Positions 2,401-7,635 of a DNA stretch of 64,000 nt are shown in pieces. Location of the stretch: NCBI RefSeq assembly GCF_040529055.1, contig NZ_CP132342.1, forward strand, positions 4,896,001 through 4,960,000, read 5' to 3'. How positions within the stretch are numbered: position 1 is the first letter of the stretch; the number at the start of each line of letters is the position of its first letter. Origin of the DNA: Xanthomonas sontii. GTDB lineage: Bacteria; Pseudomonadota; Gammaproteobacteria; Xanthomonadales; Xanthomonadaceae. The notes under the pieces are model-generated. The model was not told the origin of the DNA. It saw nothing but the letters and a program-made list of their open reading frames with translations, and made no database searches. Both the position numbers and the translations under genes were made by a program.

Positions 2401-2685
2401 ATGAGCACCACAACCATCCGCCTGCCGGACGCGCTCAAGGCCCGCGTCGCCAAGGCCGCGGAAGCGGCCGGCACCACGTCGCACAACTTCATCCTGGAAG
2501 CCATCGCCGAGAAGGCCGAGCTGGCCGAGCGGCGCGTCGACTTCCATGCAGAGGCCGAGCGCCGTTGGGGCGAATTCCTCGAAACCGGCGAGAGCATTCC
2601 CTGGGACGAGATGCGTCGCTATCTGATGGAACGCATTGAGGGCAAGGACATTCCCCCTCCCGCCGCCCGCAAGTTCGCGAAATAG
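2401..2685 (+). CDS. CopG/ribbon-helix-helix antitoxin
   Basis: This 94-residue protein begins with MSTTTIRLPDALKARVAKAA, a typical ribbon-helix-helix DNA-binding segment in which the first strand (TTIRLP) pairs across a dimer, followed by two helices. The charged C-terminal half (about residues 45-94) is the expected toxin-binding region. A ParE/RelE-type toxin gene follows after 1 nt. Antitoxins of this type neutralise the toxin and autorepress the operon, and an inverted repeat lies just upstream. Family assignment is firm. The specific partner target is unknown. Confidence 0.85.
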   Translation: MSTTTIRLPDALKARVAKAAEAAGTTSHNFILEAIAEKAELAERRVDFHAEAERRWGEFLETGESIPWDEMRRYLMERIEGKDIPPPAARKFAK

Positions 2686-2686
2686 C

Positions 2687-2986
2687 ATGGCGCACGTCGA
2701 GTTCCTGCCCTCTGTCAACGAGGACCTACGGCGCATCATCGGCCATCTGGAACAACACGAAGCCGAGCATATCCAAGAGCGTCTGAGCGAGATCGTCAGC
2801 GCATCGAACGTGCTGACGGACAATCCGCTGATCGGCCGGCTGACGCGCCATGATCTGCGTGAACTGGTGATTGGCCAAGGCGCTCAGGGATATATCGCCC
2901 TCTACCGATACGTGGTGGCGCTGGATACCGTCTTTGTCCTGGCGATCCGCGCACAACGCGAAGCAGGCTATGCACGCGATGCATGA
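2687..2986 (+). CDS. ParE/RelE superfamily toxin
   Basis: This 99-residue protein begins one base after the antitoxin stop, so the two are almost certainly cotranslated. It has the compact ParE/RelE layout: a first strand (VEFLPSVNEDL), a helical hairpin, then DNPLIGRLTRHDLRELVIG, YIALYRYVVALDTVFVLAIRAQREAGY as the closing beta-sheet and tail. ParE-like members poison DNA gyrase and RelE-like members cut ribosome-bound mRNA. The conserved Arg-rich end (RAQREAGY) is more typical of ParE-like proteins, but the target cannot be fixed from sequence. An earlier in-frame start overlaps the antitoxin and is less likely. Confidence 0.82.
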   Translation: MAHVEFLPSVNEDLRRIIGHLEQHEAEHIQERLSEIVSASNVLTDNPLIGRLTRHDLRELVIGQGAQGYIALYRYVVALDTVFVLAIRAQREAGYARDA

Positions 2987-3344: not shown

Positions 3345-4106
3345 TCAGGCCGTGCGCTCACTGGCAGGCACGTACACCGAGATCTGGATCCGGCTGCGCC
3401 CGTGATACGGCGTGCGTGCCCAGTCGCTCCAGCGCGCCTCCAGGCGCAGGCCGGCGATCTGCGCCATCAGGTCCAGCTCCGATGGCCACACATAACGGCG
3501 GCGCTCGCTGAAGATGCGCGTACCGGATTCGCCCAGTACCACCACGCGCTGGTCGATGCGCTGCTGCAGCGGATCGGGCTGCGAGCACACCAGCATCACT
3601 GCCGCGCCATCGCCGTCGGTGTCCGACACGTCCAGCACCTGGCTGACCTTGCCGCCGCTTTCGAACACCTCCGCACCCGGCACCGCGCTCTGGATCAGCA
3701 AGCGGCCGTCGGGCGCCAGGCAGCGCGCCGCGTTGACCATGCAACGCAGCTGCTCGGCCTGCGTCAGCAGATACCCGAATGCCGCCACCGCGTAGATCAG
3801 GCCGAACGGCCCGCATACCGGCATGTCGGCGAAATCGGCGCAGACCAGGTGCAGGCGTTCGCTGCCGGGCTTGGCACGCAAGGCCTCGAGCATCGCAGGC
3901 GAATTGTCGATACCGGTGACCGGCACATCGCAGTGCGCGAGCGGCAAGCCAATGCGGCCAGTGCCGATGCCCAGTTCCAGCGCCGCACGGCCCGCGGCCA
4001 GCTCGGCGAGGACACCGACGCACCGCTGGGTGACGGCGGCAGGCCAGCGATCGTAGAAACGGTCGTAGATCGCGGCCAGGCGATCGTACTCGTGGGTCAC
4101 GGGCAT
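3345..4106 (-). CDS. Class I SAM-dependent methyltransferase
   Basis: From the ATG at 4106 this encodes 253 residues starting MPVTHEYDRLAAIYDRFYDRW, the usual entry of small Rossmann methyltransferases. Motif I is ALELGIGTGRIGLPLA, which binds SAM; the acidic motif II region is VTGIDNSPAML, and CADFADMPV is the motif III region. Longer starts at 4192 or beyond are open but add a Cys/Arg-rich segment that looks non-coding. The substrate is unknown. The gene is divergent from the 26-codon YIYTY peptide gene with 283 bp between starts. The cittilin pathway, which has a similar core peptide, also uses a methyltransferase, so a tailoring role is a reasonable but untested inference. Confidence 0.75.
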   Translation of the reverse strand: MPVTHEYDRLAAIYDRFYDRWPAAVTQRCVGVLAELAAGRAALELGIGTGRIGLPLAHCDVPVTGIDNSPAMLEALRAKPGSERLHLVCADFADMPVCGPFGLIYAVAAFGYLLTQAEQLRCMVNAARCLAPDGRLLIQSAVPGAEVFESGGKVSQVLDVSDTDGDGAAVMLVCSQPDPLQQRIDQRVVVLGESGTRIFSERRRYVWPSELDLMAQIAGLRLEARWSDWARTPYHGRSRIQISVYVPASERTA

Positions 4107-4322
4107 CCGCAGCCACTCGTTGCCGAAGTGGCGCGACCATAGCACGCAGCGATGGCGACGCAGTGGCCACACGTGCAGGGCGGCACCCTGCATGGCAGGC
4201 GCGGCGATGCGCTGCAATCGCGTGCGACACACGCCACAAAACTGCAGATGACATGCGCATTGCAGTTGGCCGCGCTTCAGTCTTTTGCTTGCGCCGCCGC
4301 ATCCAAGCGAGGATGCTTTTTC

Positions 4323-4349
4323 CGCGCCTGCCACGCTGAGGCAGGCGCG
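4323..4349 (+). promoter_or_regulatory. Hairpin in the leader of the peptide gene
   Basis: A perfect 10-bp stem (4323-4332 with 4340-4349, 7-nt loop) lies 40 bp before the start of the small peptide gene. No T-run follows on either strand, so it is not a standard terminator. It may stabilise the mRNA or mark an operator. Confidence 0.4.
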
Positions 4350-4389
4350 ACAATCGCAACAGATCCCCCGCTCAATCAGGAGTATCGCC

Positions 4390-4470
4390 ATGAAACGCCT
4401 TTTTGATTCGCTGTCGCGTTGGGTGCAGAGCCTCGGTGGCCGCAGGCTCGGCTACATCTACACCTACTGA
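4390..4470 (+). CDS. Predicted RiPP precursor peptide with YIYTY core
   Basis: This 26-residue peptide starts MKRLFDSLSRWVQSLGGRR and ends LGYIYTY. AGGAG (4378-4382) lies 7 nt before the ATG, the best Shine-Dalgarno sequence in this locus. The first 15 residues look like a basic amphipathic leader helix, GGRR (16-19) could be a processing site, and the C-terminal YIYTY holds three Tyr side chains. A P450 gene follows. In Myxococcus, cittilins are made from a precursor of about the same length with a C-terminal YIYY core crosslinked by a P450; here a Thr is inserted before the last Tyr. The assignment combines sequence, neighbours and that precedent; no product is proven. No dedicated protease or exporter is adjacent. 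Confidence 0.78.
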   Translation: MKRLFDSLSRWVQSLGGRRLGYIYTY

Positions 4471-4504
4471 CCTCCCCCGCCACCGTCGCGTGGCATGACC
4501 GTGC

Positions 4505-4529
4505 GAGAGGGGGCGACCCGCCCCCTCTC
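4505..4529 (+). promoter_or_regulatory. Strong hairpin between peptide gene and P450 gene
   Basis: A perfect stem of about 10 bp (4505-4514 with 4520-4529, loop GACCC) begins 35 nt after the peptide stop. It lacks a T-run. Such a structure could protect the 3' end of a short precursor mRNA or let only part of transcription continue into the P450 gene, giving more peptide than enzyme. This is inference. Confidence 0.45.
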
Positions 4530-4638
4530 CCCAGCGCTCTCCGCTTCGCACGGCCGCACGCCCGTTCGCCATCGGCTCCATGTCCCCTCCTGCGTCACGG
4601 TGTGACCCGCCGACACGGCTATTCGTGCGGATCTGCAC

Positions 4639-6027
4639 GTGACCGATCCGCACCCGCGCCCGCCAGGCCCACGCGGGCACTGGGCATTCGGCAACCGGCA
4701 GGCTTTCGCCACCGATCCCCTCGACTTCCTGCAAGGCTGCGCACGCACGCATGGCGACGTGGTGCGGATCGCCGAGCGCACCTATCTGCTCGCAGCACCA
4801 AGCGCGATCGCCACGGTGCTCGGCGACGACGGCAGCCTCTACGCCAAATCCGATCCGGATCCGCGTGCGCGGCGCGCTGCCTTTCCGGCATCGGTGATGA
4901 ACAGCGACGGCGAGGCCTGGCGGCGCAAGCGCCAGGCGCTGCAGCCCGCGTTCCGCGCCAGCCTGGTGCGCGACTACGCCGCAAAGGCGGCCGCCGCCAC
5001 ACAGGCGCTGCTGCGATCGCGCGACGACATCGACAACGTGCACGACCTGCGCCTGACCATGACCGCGCTCTGCGCGCAACTGGGCGCCGGCTTCCTGCTC
5101 GGCGATGCGGTGCACGCGCCGGCGCTGCTGCGGATGCTGCCGATGGTCGATGCGATCCTGCAGCAGACGCGTACGCCGTCCGCGGCGCCGGCCTGGTGGC
5201 CGAGTGCCGGCAAGCGCCGCCTGCGTGCCGCACGCGGCGCACTGGACACCGCGCTGACGCAGATCCTGACGTCGCCACATTCTGATGGCGCAGACGCCTC
5301 GGTGCTGGAGCTGCTGCAACGCGACGCTCCGCAGGCCGACGACGACTGGTGCCGCGACGAAGCGGCGGCGATGCTGATGTCGGCGCTGGAGCCGATGGCG
5401 GCCGGCCTGACCTGGACGCTGTTGCTGCTGGCGCAACATCCATCGATCGCGCAGGCCGTGGCGGAGGAAGCCGATGCCCTGCCCGGTATCGACGGCGCAT
5501 CCGCCACGCCCTGCGCCGATGCGCTCGTCGAACGCCTGCCGCTGACGCGCGCCTGCGTGAAGGAGGCCATGCGCCTGTATCCGCCGGCATGGATGACCGC
5601 GCGCATCGCGCAACGCGACACCACGCTGGGCGGCTTCGCGGTGCCGCGCGGTACCCAGTTGATCGTCAGCCAGTGGGTGGTGCAGCGCGATCCGCGTAAC
5701 TTCTCCGCGGCGGACCGCTTCCTGCCGGCGCGCTGGCTGGACCCGGCGCAGACACCGGCGCGCTACACCTACTTTCCGTTCGGCGGCGGTCCGCGCAGTT
5801 GCATCGGCAGCCAGTTGGCGCTGGTGCAGATGACCGTGGTCGTGGCCGGCCTGTTGCGCGAGCGCACCCTGCACCTGGCGACGGATGCACGGCCACGGCC
5901 GTATCCGGCGCTGGTGCTGCGTCCACTCGATGTCCGCATCGCCTTGCGCCCGCGCACGACAACCCTGTCCCGCCAGTCGCCCGCGACGGCGCCCTTCCCC
6001 CGCACACCGGAAACCCCGCATGGCTGA
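4639..6027 (+). CDS. Cytochrome P450, putative peptide-crosslinking enzyme
   Basis: This 462-residue P450 has the proline-rich entry PRPPGPRG, the ExxR motif at E309-R312 (KEAMRLYPP), and the heme loop FGGGPRSCIG at 381-390 with Cys388 as axial ligand. The I-helix reads SALEPMAAGLTW: Glu251 is followed by Pro252 where most monooxygenases have Thr. Loss of this Thr fits a P450 that couples aromatic side chains rather than inserting oxygen, although it is not proof. The GTG at 4639 is the first start after an upstream stop at 4603 and has no clear Shine-Dalgarno sequence. The gene lies 168 bp after the YIYTY peptide gene and overlaps the next gene by 8 nt. An alternative is a P450 acting on an unrelated small molecule. 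Confidence 0.88.
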   Translation: MTDPHPRPPGPRGHWAFGNRQAFATDPLDFLQGCARTHGDVVRIAERTYLLAAPSAIATVLGDDGSLYAKSDPDPRARRAAFPASVMNSDGEAWRRKRQALQPAFRASLVRDYAAKAAAATQALLRSRDDIDNVHDLRLTMTALCAQLGAGFLLGDAVHAPALLRMLPMVDAILQQTRTPSAAPAWWPSAGKRRLRAARGALDTALTQILTSPHSDGADASVLELLQRDAPQADDDWCRDEAAAMLMSALEPMAAGLTWTLLLLAQHPSIAQAVAEEADALPGIDGASATPCADALVERLPLTRACVKEAMRLYPPAWMTARIAQRDTTLGGFAVPRGTQLIVSQWVVQRDPRNFSAADRFLPARWLDPAQTPARYTYFPFGGGPRSCIGSQLALVQMTVVVAGLLRERTLHLATDARPRPYPALVLRPLDVRIALRPRTTTLSRQSPATAPFPRTPETPHG

Positions 6028-6934
6028 TTCCACTGCCTTCGCCAAGACCCGGGAATACTCCAACCGCTTTTTCGATTCCGCCGCGTGGAACGCGCTGGAG
6101 TTTCGCGACGGCGACATCGTCATCGCCAGCTACGCCAAGGCCGGCACCACCTGGCTGCAGCAGATCGTCGCGCAGTTGCTGTTCGAGGGCGCGGCGGACG
6201 TCGACGTGTCGGCGATCTCGCCGTGGCTGGACGGCGTGTACCCGGACCGCGCCAGCAAGCTCGCGCTGCTGCAGGCGCAGACCCACCGGCGCTTCATCAA
6301 GACCCACCTCCCGGCCGATGCGCTGGTGATCAGCGATCGCGCCAAGTACCTGTACATCGGCCGCGATGGCCGCGACATCGCGCTCAGCCTGTACGACCAC
6401 CAGTGTGCGGTCAGCCAGGATGCGCAGGCGCGGCTGGATGCCGGCGCGACCGAACCGGGCAAGCTGCGCGTGGTGCCGCCGCCGAGCCTGCCGGTGGACG
6501 CCTACGTGGCACATTGGCTGGCCCACGACGGTGCGCCGTTCTGGCCGTTCTGGGAAGGCGTGCGCAGCTGGTGGCAGCAGCGCGCGCAGCCGAACGTGCT
6601 GCTGGTGCACTACGCCGATCTGCTGGTGGATCTGCCCGCGCAGGTGCGACGCATCGCCGCGTTTCTCGAGATCCCGATACGCGACGCCACCTGGGACAAG
6701 ATCCTGGCGCACTGCCAGTTCGACTACATGCGCCAGCACGCCGCGCGCTACGTGCCGCAGGGCGCCGGGCTGTGGCGCGAAGGCGGCAAGGCCTTCTTCA
6801 ACCAGGGCCGCAGCGGCCGCTGGCGCACGCTGTTGCCGGCGGCCGTGGCCGCCGACTATGAGGCGCGTGCGCAGGCGGAACTGGGCCGCGAGGCGGCGCA
6901 GTGGCTGGCGCAGGGCGCCGGGGCGACGCCATGA
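6020..6934 (+). CDS. PAPS-dependent sulfotransferase (Sulfotransfer_1 type)
   Basis: This 304-residue protein has the cytosolic aryl/alcohol sulfotransferase signatures in order: the 5'-phosphosulfate loop SYAKAGTTWLQQIV (around Lys40), the catalytic segment RFIKTHLP with His96, the 3'-phosphate segment YIGRDGRDIALSLY, and the C-terminal FNQGRSGRWRTLLP cap. Such enzymes transfer sulfate from PAPS to phenols, alcohols or amines. The ATG at 6020 overlaps the P450 end by 8 nt and the stop overlaps the next start by 4 nt, so the three genes are translationally coupled. A Tyr or Thr hydroxyl of the YIYTY peptide is the obvious candidate acceptor by context; the sequence itself does not show the substrate. 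Confidence 0.88.
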   Translation: MADSTAFAKTREYSNRFFDSAAWNALEFRDGDIVIASYAKAGTTWLQQIVAQLLFEGAADVDVSAISPWLDGVYPDRASKLALLQAQTHRRFIKTHLPADALVISDRAKYLYIGRDGRDIALSLYDHQCAVSQDAQARLDAGATEPGKLRVVPPPSLPVDAYVAHWLAHDGAPFWPFWEGVRSWWQQRAQPNVLLVHYADLLVDLPAQVRRIAAFLEIPIRDATWDKILAHCQFDYMRQHAARYVPQGAGLWREGGKAFFNQGRSGRWRTLLPAAVAADYEARAQAELGREAAQWLAQGAGATP

Positions 6935-7635
6935 GCCTGCGCATCATCGGCGCCGGCCTCGGCCGCACCGGCACCCTGTCGCTGAAGCTGGCGCTGGAGC
7001 ATCTGGGCCTGGGCCGCTGCTATCACGCCATGGAACTGGCCGCGCACCTGCGCCAGGCCTTGCCGCTGTGGGACGCGGCGATCGACGGGCAGGCGGACTG
7101 GGACACGCTGTTCGCCGGCTACACCGCCAGCGTCGACTATCCCGGCTGCTGCTTCTGGCGCGAGCTGGTCGCGCGCTACCCGCAGGCCAAGGTGATCCTG
7201 ACCGTGCGCGATGCCGATGCCTGGTTCGAGTCGGTGCGCAGCACCATCTTCGCCAGCGACGGCAGCGTGCCGGCCCTGTTCGGCGCCGAGGGCCAGCGGC
7301 TGAGTCAGTTCCTGCGCCGCGACTTCGCCACGCGCATCGACGATCGCGGCTTCATGACCGACTATTTCCGCCGTTGGAACCAGGCCGTCATCGCCAGCGT
7401 GCCGGCGCAGCGCCTGCTGGTGCTCGACACCGACGCGCAGACGGGCTGGGAGCCGCTGTGCGCCTTCCTGGGCGTGCCGGTGCCGGCACAGCCGTATCCA
7501 CGCGTGCATGCGCGCAGCGGCGGCGGCACGCAAGCGCGCCCGCTGCCCAGCGACCCGGCGCAACGCGAGCAACGCCTGCGCGCCTACCTGGACCGGCTCG
7601 CCGTCGAGGCGTTCGCAGCGCCCGCCGACGGCTGA
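6931..7635 (+). CDS. Sulfotransferase family protein (Sulfotransfer_4 type)
   Basis: The protein has 234 residues. It starts MSLRIIGAGLGRTGTLSLKL, where GLGRTGTLS is the PAPS-binding loop of the Sulfotransfer_4 family, followed by ALEHLGLGRCYHAMEL. VILTVRDADAWFESVRSTIF is the 3'-phosphate-binding strand-helix. It starts by an ATGA overlap with the first sulfotransferase and ends 12 bp from a convergent gene. It belongs to a different family from its neighbour, so the pair is not a simple duplication. Few bacterial members have known substrates. A second sulfation step on the same product, or an accessory role, are both possible. Confidence 0.82.
   Translation: MSLRIIGAGLGRTGTLSLKLALEHLGLGRCYHAMELAAHLRQALPLWDAAIDGQADWDTLFAGYTASVDYPGCCFWRELVARYPQAKVILTVRDADAWFESVRSTIFASDGSVPALFGAEGQRLSQFLRRDFATRIDDRGFMTDYFRRWNQAVIASVPAQRLLVLDTDAQTGWEPLCAFLGVPVPAQPYPRVHARSGGGTQARPLPSDPAQREQRLRAYLDRLAVEAFAAPADG

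What the first reader, a model, noticed from the sequence alone, without database searches (positions are those of the whole stretch)
3345..7635. Candidate cittilin-like RiPP locus with two sulfotransferases
A 26-codon gene ending in YIYTY, a P450 and two coupled sulfotransferase genes lie on one strand, with a divergent methyltransferase. Cittilins of Myxococcus come from a short precursor with a YIYY core, a P450 crosslinker and a methyltransferase (from memory of published work). Here the core has an added Thr and sulfation enzymes are present, so the product would be a new type: a crosslinked, sulfated, perhaps methylated pentapeptide. Xanthomonas already has a precedent for tyrosine sulfation of a secreted peptide (RaxX/RaxST), which makes a signalling or host-directed role worth considering.
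Basis: partly seen in the sequence, partly recalled or inferred. Interest (0 to 1): 0.94.

Follow-up and report, generated by a model that had tools for sequence, protein, structure and literature searches.

The report
Bacterial phytosulfokine-mimic peptide gene cluster
A small conserved gene cluster in plant-associated bacteria appears to make a sulfated copy of the plant growth and immunity hormone phytosulfokine, here as a variant with one extra tyrosine that an oxidising enzyme probably modifies.

Summary
In detail: a 26-codon gene (4390-4470, leader plus YIYTY), a P450, two overlapping sulfotransferase genes and a divergent methyltransferase. The small gene stood beside the P450 in 17 of 17 distinct loci whose DNA I read: Xanthomonas, Trinickia, Robbsia and Agrobacterium vitis/Allorhizobium plasmids. 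Leaders diverge (6/21 identical in Robbsia) while the core stays 5/5 there.

"Cittilin-like" is only partly right. YIYT is the first four residues of phytosulfokine-alpha, Y(SO3)IY(SO3)TQ; published modelling finds Y1, I2, Y3, T4 important and position 5 tolerant. Strongest result: at the same chromosomal place, two X. albilineans-like genomes carry a related small gene ending in YIYTQ, the exact hormone sequence, with both sulfotransferases and the methyltransferase but no P450.

Verdict: a locus for a sulfated phytosulfokine mimic; the P450 probably oxidises or cross-links the extra Tyr5. Against: three Xanthomonas cores deviate (YIYSY, YIYIY, FTYIY), and no product, sulfation, export or receptor binding is shown. 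I found no description in ten paper searches, though a review lists one metagenomic bacterial YIYTQ.

The parts
4390..4470 (+). precursor gene, MKRLFDSLSRWVQSLGGRRLGYIYTY (26 aa)
   Evidence: Open frame with ATG and AGGAG upstream; counterpart in 17 of 17 distinct loci with this P450.
4453..4467 (+). core YIYTY at the extreme C-terminus; YIYT equals residues 1-4 of phytosulfokine-alpha
   Evidence: Column counts over 14 precursors: Y1 13, I2 13, Y3 14, T4 11 (I 2, S 1), Y5 14 of 14. Phytosulfokine sequence from PMC10796568, section 4 seen.
4378..4382 (+). Shine-Dalgarno-like AGGAG
   Evidence: Read directly in the sequence.
4639..6027 (+). cytochrome P450 (GTG start), I-helix SALEPMAAG in place of the usual AGxET, heme loop FGGGPRSCIG
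   Evidence: PF00067 E 1.8e-55; nearest NCBIfam model is the RiPP P450 ApyO, 188 bits against a cut-off of 525; clade with the E-P motif is one group, support 100/100, in a 36-row tree.
6020..6934 (+). ST1, SULT-type sulfotransferase
   Evidence: PF00685 E 4.8e-45; SYAKAGTT, KTHLP and GRDGRDI stretches invariant in 6 aligned relatives (their roles as PAPS site and catalytic His are recalled).
6931..7635 (+). ST2, PF17784-type sulfotransferase
   Evidence: PF17784 E 5.8e-57; GAGLGRTGTLSLK invariant in 7 aligned relatives.
3345..4106 (-). class I methyltransferase, divergently oriented
   Evidence: PF13649 E 2.1e-13; kept in 9 of 10 other distinct Xanthomonas loci, in 4 of 4 A. vitis/A. ampelinum loci, in both Burkholderiaceae loci and in both YIYTQ loci.

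Best explanation
The locus makes a tyrosine-sulfated mimic of the plant peptide hormone phytosulfokine (PSK). Shown by sequence: a short precursor whose last five residues are YIYTY (YIYTQ in sister loci), with two different sulfotransferases, a methyltransferase and, only in the Tyr5 form, a P450 of a distinct clade. Inferred: the leader (common element R/H/Q-K-[LVP]-[GAR] just before the core) guides the enzymes and is cut off by a host-cell protease; ST1 and ST2 sulfate Tyr1 and Tyr3 with PAPS, as in PSK; the P450 acts on the extra Tyr5, most likely as a Tyr3-Tyr5 cross-link of the YxY type or another oxidation of Tyr5; the methyltransferase adds a methyl group at an unknown site. The exported peptide would engage plant PSK receptors and favour growth over pattern-triggered immunity.
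For: (1) The core is under far stronger constraint than the leader: Robbsia leader 6/21, core 5/5; Trinickia 9/21 and 5/5; A. vitis/A. ampelinum core 5/5 with a leader alike in little but basic residues. (2) G198 and G170, at the ahcY-to-porin place that also flanks the window cluster, carry MKIKNAISIVFR[RK]ILNVFGPRKVAYIYTQ between ST1 and ST2, with a methyltransferase and without P450; between the two genomes 9 synonymous (one is the stop codon) and 1 nonsynonymous codon differences, P = 8.5e-5 for at most 1 nonsynonymous of 9 sense codons against a neutral share of 0.757. (3) P450 and Tyr5 go together: Tyr5 in 17 of 17 P450 loci, no P450 hit in the 15 kb around either YIYTQ gene nor a P450 match at 1e-60 in either genome. 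(4) PSK work: sY1 and sY3 indispensable, I2 and T4 buried, Q5A tolerated (PMC11994915, passages); natural PSKs vary at positions 2 and 5 only (PMC10796568, section 4). (5) Named carriers are largely plant pathogens or plant isolates (names; lifestyles partly recalled). (6) PSK signalling weakens PTI and raises susceptibility to biotrophic and hemibiotrophic pathogens (PMC11658183 abstract; PMC12618502 passages). (7) The genome has an APS kinase for PAPS.
Against: No peptide, sulfation, cross-link, export or receptor binding is shown. Position 4 is Ser or Ile in two Xanthomonas loci and the core is FTYIY in a third. YIY is also in cittilin's YIYY (recalled; YIYY itself was not found in the paper searched), so a P450 preference could explain part of the likeness where a P450 is present. 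A cross-link might spoil the PSK shape. The sulfotransferases are not of the TPST/RaxST kind. No transporter or protease lies in the cluster. No HrpX-type PIP box was found in 14 upstream stretches.
Confidence: 0.74

Rival explanations
1. A cittilin-type P450-cross-linked, sulfated and methylated small peptide with a bacterial or ecological function unrelated to PSK; the YIYT likeness is a by-product of the P450's liking for Y-hydrophobic-Y.
For: P450, methyltransferase and a C-terminal YxY core parallel cittilins (PMC8708641 passages) and ApyO, which joins two Tyr in YLY (PMC13192836 passages); nearest NCBIfam model is ApyO; core position 4 varies.
Against: Two sister loci have no P450 yet keep YIYT and end exactly in the hormone's Gln; sulfotransferases, not the P450, are the constant partners; named carriers are mostly plant-associated.
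Confidence: 0.15
2. The product is a PSK-pathway antagonist or decoy rather than an agonist: the modified Tyr5 or a cross-link blocks co-receptor recruitment.
For: Extra Tyr5 plus a P450 in the YIYTY form only.
Against: Published position-5 tolerance and the unmodified YIYTQ form in sister loci make an agonist simpler; nothing here tests agonism.
Confidence: 0.06
3. The sulfotransferases and methyltransferase modify another small molecule, and the small gene is a leader peptide or regulator of the operon.
For: ST1 and ST2 belong to large families: 5476 and 7810 proteins at E <= 1e-30 among about 8000 scored candidates each.
Against: Conservation of the encoded core across three orders with synonymous changes, stop directly after the core, gene order changing while the set stays.
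Confidence: 0.05

Closest known systems
RaxX / RaxST / RaxAB of Xanthomonas (mimic of plant PSY peptides)
   Same: Bacterial tyrosine-sulfated mimic of a plant sulfopeptide hormone, sulfated in the bacterium (PMC8618561 and PMC9372746 passages).
   Different: Different hormone (PSK, not PSY), much shorter precursor (26 aa against 60), two non-TPST sulfotransferases (PF00685, PF17784), a P450 and a methyltransferase, and no transporter gene in the cluster.
Phytosulfokine (PSK-alpha, plant hormone)
   Same: YIYT identical; YIYTQ exact in two sister loci; pentapeptide length.
   Different: Window form ends in Tyr; precursor has no obvious secretion signal and no Asp before the first Tyr; plants use TPST and subtilases.
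Fungal PSK-like genes and one bacterial PSK homologue listed from a phyllosphere metagenome
   Same: YIYTQ (PMC8618561 table passage and section 16).
   Different: Described there as signal-domain preproteins without dedicated modifying enzymes; the metagenomic bacterial one was not available for comparison.
Cittilins (CitA, CitB, methyltransferase; Myxococcus)
   Same: Short precursor (27 aa), P450 and methyltransferase (PMC8708641 passages).
   Different: Core YIYY (recalled), no sulfotransferase recalled; CitB could not be compared.
Aminopyruvatide P450 ApyO
   Same: Nearest NCBIfam model; joins two Tyr in a Y-Leu-Y motif.
   Different: 188 bits against a membership cut-off of 525; other enzymes (MNIO) and a C-terminal Asp in that pathway.
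Biarylitide clusters with sulfotransferases
   Same: P450-linked RiPPs; 17 BGCs of a 277-BGC data set encode sulfotransferases (five in one clade and 12 others; PMC13417212 passage).
   Different: Five-residue precursors with other motifs; no PSK-like core.

Membership tests
Phytosulfokine mimic | core sequence YIYTQ or a natural variant | tested here: inconclusive
   Window: YIYT-Y, 4 of 5. Two sister loci at the same place: YIYTQ, 5 of 5.
Phytosulfokine mimic | dedicated sulfation capacity (two sulfotyrosines) | tested here: inconclusive
   Two sulfotransferase genes beside the precursor and an APS kinase in the genome; sulfation itself not shown.
Phytosulfokine mimic | binds and activates PSK receptors | not testable with these tools
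   Needs binding and plant assays.
Cittilin family | YIYY core at the C-terminus | tested here: not met
   YIYTY in the window; no YIYY in 14 precursors tabulated.
Cittilin family | P450 homologous to CitB | not tested
   CitB sequence not obtained.
Cittilin family | methyltransferase in the cluster | tested here: met
   3345-4106 (-); kept in 9 of 10 other distinct Xanthomonas loci.
ApyO family (NF050147) | score over the curated cut-off | tested here: not met
   188.4 bits against 525.
RaxX/RaxSTAB system | TPST-type RaxST sulfotransferase | tested here: not met
   ST1 is PF00685 and ST2 PF17784; PF13469 is a weaker match for ST1 (27.9 bits against 154.4 for PF00685) and absent for ST2.
RaxX/RaxSTAB system | adjacent peptidase-transporter genes | tested here: not met
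   None among the conserved cluster genes in 3345-7635.
Biarylitides | five-residue precursor gene | tested here: not met
   Precursor is 26 aa.
P450-modified RiPP | conserved precursor gene adjacent to a P450 of a distinct clade | tested here: met
   17 of 17 loci; clade support 100/100. Modification not shown.

The most novel reading that the evidence does not exclude
Bacteria of three orders carry a dedicated biosynthetic pathway for the plant hormone phytosulfokine, in two chemical forms: authentic PSK-alpha (YIYTQ, two sulfotransferases, no P450) in X. albilineans-like genomes, and a P450-modified YIYTY analogue in other Xanthomonas, Trinickia, Robbsia and Agrobacterium vitis.
Probability: 0.7. 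Interest if true: 0.96.

Novelty: new variant of a known kind. Interest (0 to 1): 0.93.

Why it matters
The PMC review seen here calls RaxX the only known ready-made peptide hormone secreted by a plant pathogen (PMC8618561, passage). A second such pathway, aimed at phytosulfokine, a hormone that dampens pattern-triggered immunity, would show that hormone mimicry by sulfated peptides is a recurring bacterial strategy spanning Alpha- and Gammaproteobacteria and, in current NCBI terms, Betaproteobacteria. It would give new tyrosine-directed sulfotransferases of two families, explain a P450 clade, and make a clear prediction for plants: activity should depend on the PSK receptors. It would also connect a tumour-forming grapevine bacterium with a hormone first found as a cell-division factor.

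Tried and rejected
Plain cittilin reading: set aside because sister loci lack the P450 but keep YIYT and both sulfotransferases. Chance open frame: rejected by conservation. HrpX control: no PIP box in 14 upstream stretches, and no sigma-70-like site by my simple pattern. Class-wide search with the P450 profile: 24 of 369 genomes at 1e-60, the window's own included; of the 24 outside loci L055-L078 scanned, those with a readable I-helix (10) were of the AGHET kind and none was E-P. In the 120 listed P450 homologues my motif script found E-P in 35, all between P0001 and P0043, and misread or missed some rows; in the alignment of 23 rows 22 show it. Searches that led nowhere: hydrogenase as a taxonomic marker (69 of 369 genomes, no use); 16S in the class sample (184 genomes, no close kin); Comamonadaceae-like family (0 of 195; the tool warns that this shows nothing), although Paracidovorax proteins exist. 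Plasmid search with P0042: 2 weak archaeal hits. Solved structures: ordinary P450s and SULTs are nearest. Structure prediction was not used.

Results against the reading, repeated here: cores YIYSY (L052), YIYIY (L044) and FTYIY (L053); L053 also lacks ST1 and methyltransferase; broken-looking P450 and methyltransferase frames in L046; no export gene.
Full report
What is there. The window lies in one 5.02-Mb Xanthomonas chromosome (genus from close named relatives). Between 3345 and 7635 stand a divergent class I methyltransferase (3345-4106, -), a 26-codon gene (4390-4470), a P450 (4639-6027), and two sulfotransferases, ST1 (6020-6934) and ST2 (6931-7635), which overlap each other and the P450.

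Conservation. P450 relatives at 66-87% identity occur in 7 of 20 genomes of the genus at E <= 1e-60, the window's own included, and in named X. sp. NCPPB 1128, X. sp. F10, X. maliensis, X. axonopodis, X. cissicola and X. phaseoli (X. maliensis 59%). Every one of the 11 distinct Xanthomonas loci, the window included, has a small gene upstream ending in YIYTY (8), YIYSY (1), YIYIY (1) or FTYIY (1). Of the 10 others, 9 have methyltransferase, P450, ST1 and ST2; L053 lacks methyltransferase and ST1.

Beyond Xanthomonas. A plasmid search with a Robbsia P450 led to Agrobacterium vitis and Allorhizobium ampelinum plasmids (6 of the 42 matching records). The four that I opened each carry a 25-codon gene MKKFLAVFIGASKLNRRKPRYIYTY, then P450, methyltransferase and two sulfotransferases. 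Identities to the window: methyltransferase 49%, P450 36%, ST1 56%, ST2 60%. A search of 398 genomes of the Burkholderiaceae-like family of G747 gave two carriers. One holds proteins identical to those named Trinickia caryophylli, the other proteins over 99% identical to those named Robbsia andropogonis; their small genes are MKNMISVVSKLVRILGGHKLGYIYTY and MKSMIGGITKLVRMFGWQKLGYIYTY, in the order precursor, P450, ST1, methyltransferase, ST2. Leaders differ widely while the core does not. Over 14 precursors Tyr3 and Tyr5 are invariant, Tyr1 and Ile2 13 of 14, Thr4 11 of 14.

The P450. Its I-helix reads SALEPMAAG, so the usual acid-alcohol pair is Glu-Pro. The motif was read in 16 of the 17 loci (15; L087 as P0031); in L046 the frame is broken and it was not read. 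E-P rows form one group with 100/100 support in a 36-row tree; the A. vitis row is a long branch whose inner place is unsure. The nearest NCBIfam model is ApyO, far below its cut-off.

Phytosulfokine. PSK-alpha is Y(SO3)IY(SO3)TQ; natural variants differ at positions 2 and 5 (PMC10796568, section 4 read). A study whose passages I saw reports sY1 and sY3 indispensable, I2 and T4 nearly buried, and Q5A tolerated (PMC11994915). The bacterial core keeps those four residues. PSK signalling represses defence (PMC11658183, abstract) and raises susceptibility to biotrophic and hemibiotrophic pathogens; a fungal effector exploits it (PMC12618502, passages).

The decisive locus. Looking for ST2 of the L053 type in 8 held Xanthomonas genomes gave 3 matches, L053's own genome and G198 and G170. 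In G198 and G170, between ahcY and the porin-like gene that also flank the window cluster, lie methyltransferase, ST1, a small gene and ST2, with no P450 hit in 15 kb. The small gene is MKIKNAISIVFR[RK]ILNVFGPRKVAYIYTQ (L094 6831-6920, L095 6728-6817, both -): the exact PSK-alpha pentapeptide at its C-terminus, with a GGTGAG stretch just upstream. The two copies differ by 9 synonymous codons (one the stop) and 1 conservative nonsynonymous codon (P 8.5e-5 for the sense codons). The ST2 of G198 is identical to a protein named X. albilineans. Neither genome has a P450 match at 1e-60.

How it most likely works. Shown: gene set, core, and the pairing of P450 with Tyr5. Inferred: sulfation of Tyr1 and Tyr3 by ST1 and ST2; P450 action on Tyr5, perhaps a Tyr3-Tyr5 bond as ApyO makes in YLY (PMC13192836, passages); leader removal and export by genes elsewhere; action on PSK receptors. 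L053, which has Phe in place of Tyr1 and has lost ST1 and the methyltransferase, suggests that ST1 serves Tyr1; this is one case. The methyltransferase is kept in the YIYTQ loci, so its target is not Tyr5 alone.

Prior knowledge. Ten paper searches of an open-licence library gave no description of this cluster; subscription papers are largely absent. A 2021 review tabulates YIYTQ for fungi and for one 'Proteobacteria sp.' from a phyllosphere metagenome, function unstudied (PMC8618561, passages and section 16), so a bacterial YIYTQ has been noted before; the pathway, the enzymes and the YIYTY form have not been found by me. No E-value, count or paper is taken from memory; host lifestyles, catalytic-motif roles and the cittilin core are recalled where so marked.

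Noticed in passing
L053 7751-10130 (G200, X. cerealis-like): Hybrid or decaying version: core FTYIY, P450 kept, ST1 and methyltransferase absent, ST2 inverted and of the X. albilineans-like type (81% identical to L094 ST2).
   Followed up: partly
L046 8797-11340 (X. phaseoli pv. phaseoli ATCC 49119): Methyltransferase and P450 each match in two pieces lying in different frames, so both look broken or mis-sequenced; the small gene, ST1 and ST2 each match in one piece.
   Followed up: no
L079 9910-10824 and counterparts in L080-L082: A phytanoyl-CoA dioxygenase-like gene (PF05721) lies next to the cassette on all four A. vitis/A. ampelinum plasmids opened, on the opposite strand; perhaps a further tailoring gene.
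   Followed up: no
proteins P0132/P0255, P0155/P0280, P0154/P0281: Paired ST1- and ST2-like proteins sharing longest-contig lengths in Sphingobium/Sphingomonadales, Gynuella sunshinyii and a marine Reinekea MAG; whether a YIYT-type gene lies beside them is unknown.
   Followed up: no
window 2401-2986: A two-gene toxin-antitoxin-like pair (small DNA-binding-type protein and a ParE/RelE-like protein, by eye) between ahcY and the methyltransferase; found by tblastn in 6 of 10 other distinct Xanthomonas loci.
   Followed up: no
proteins P0136, P0139, P0268: ST1 (X. euvesicatoria, X. arboricola) and ST2 (X. campestris pv. pennamericanum) proteins about 82% identical to those of the YIYTQ loci: likely further YIYTQ-type loci.
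   Followed up: no
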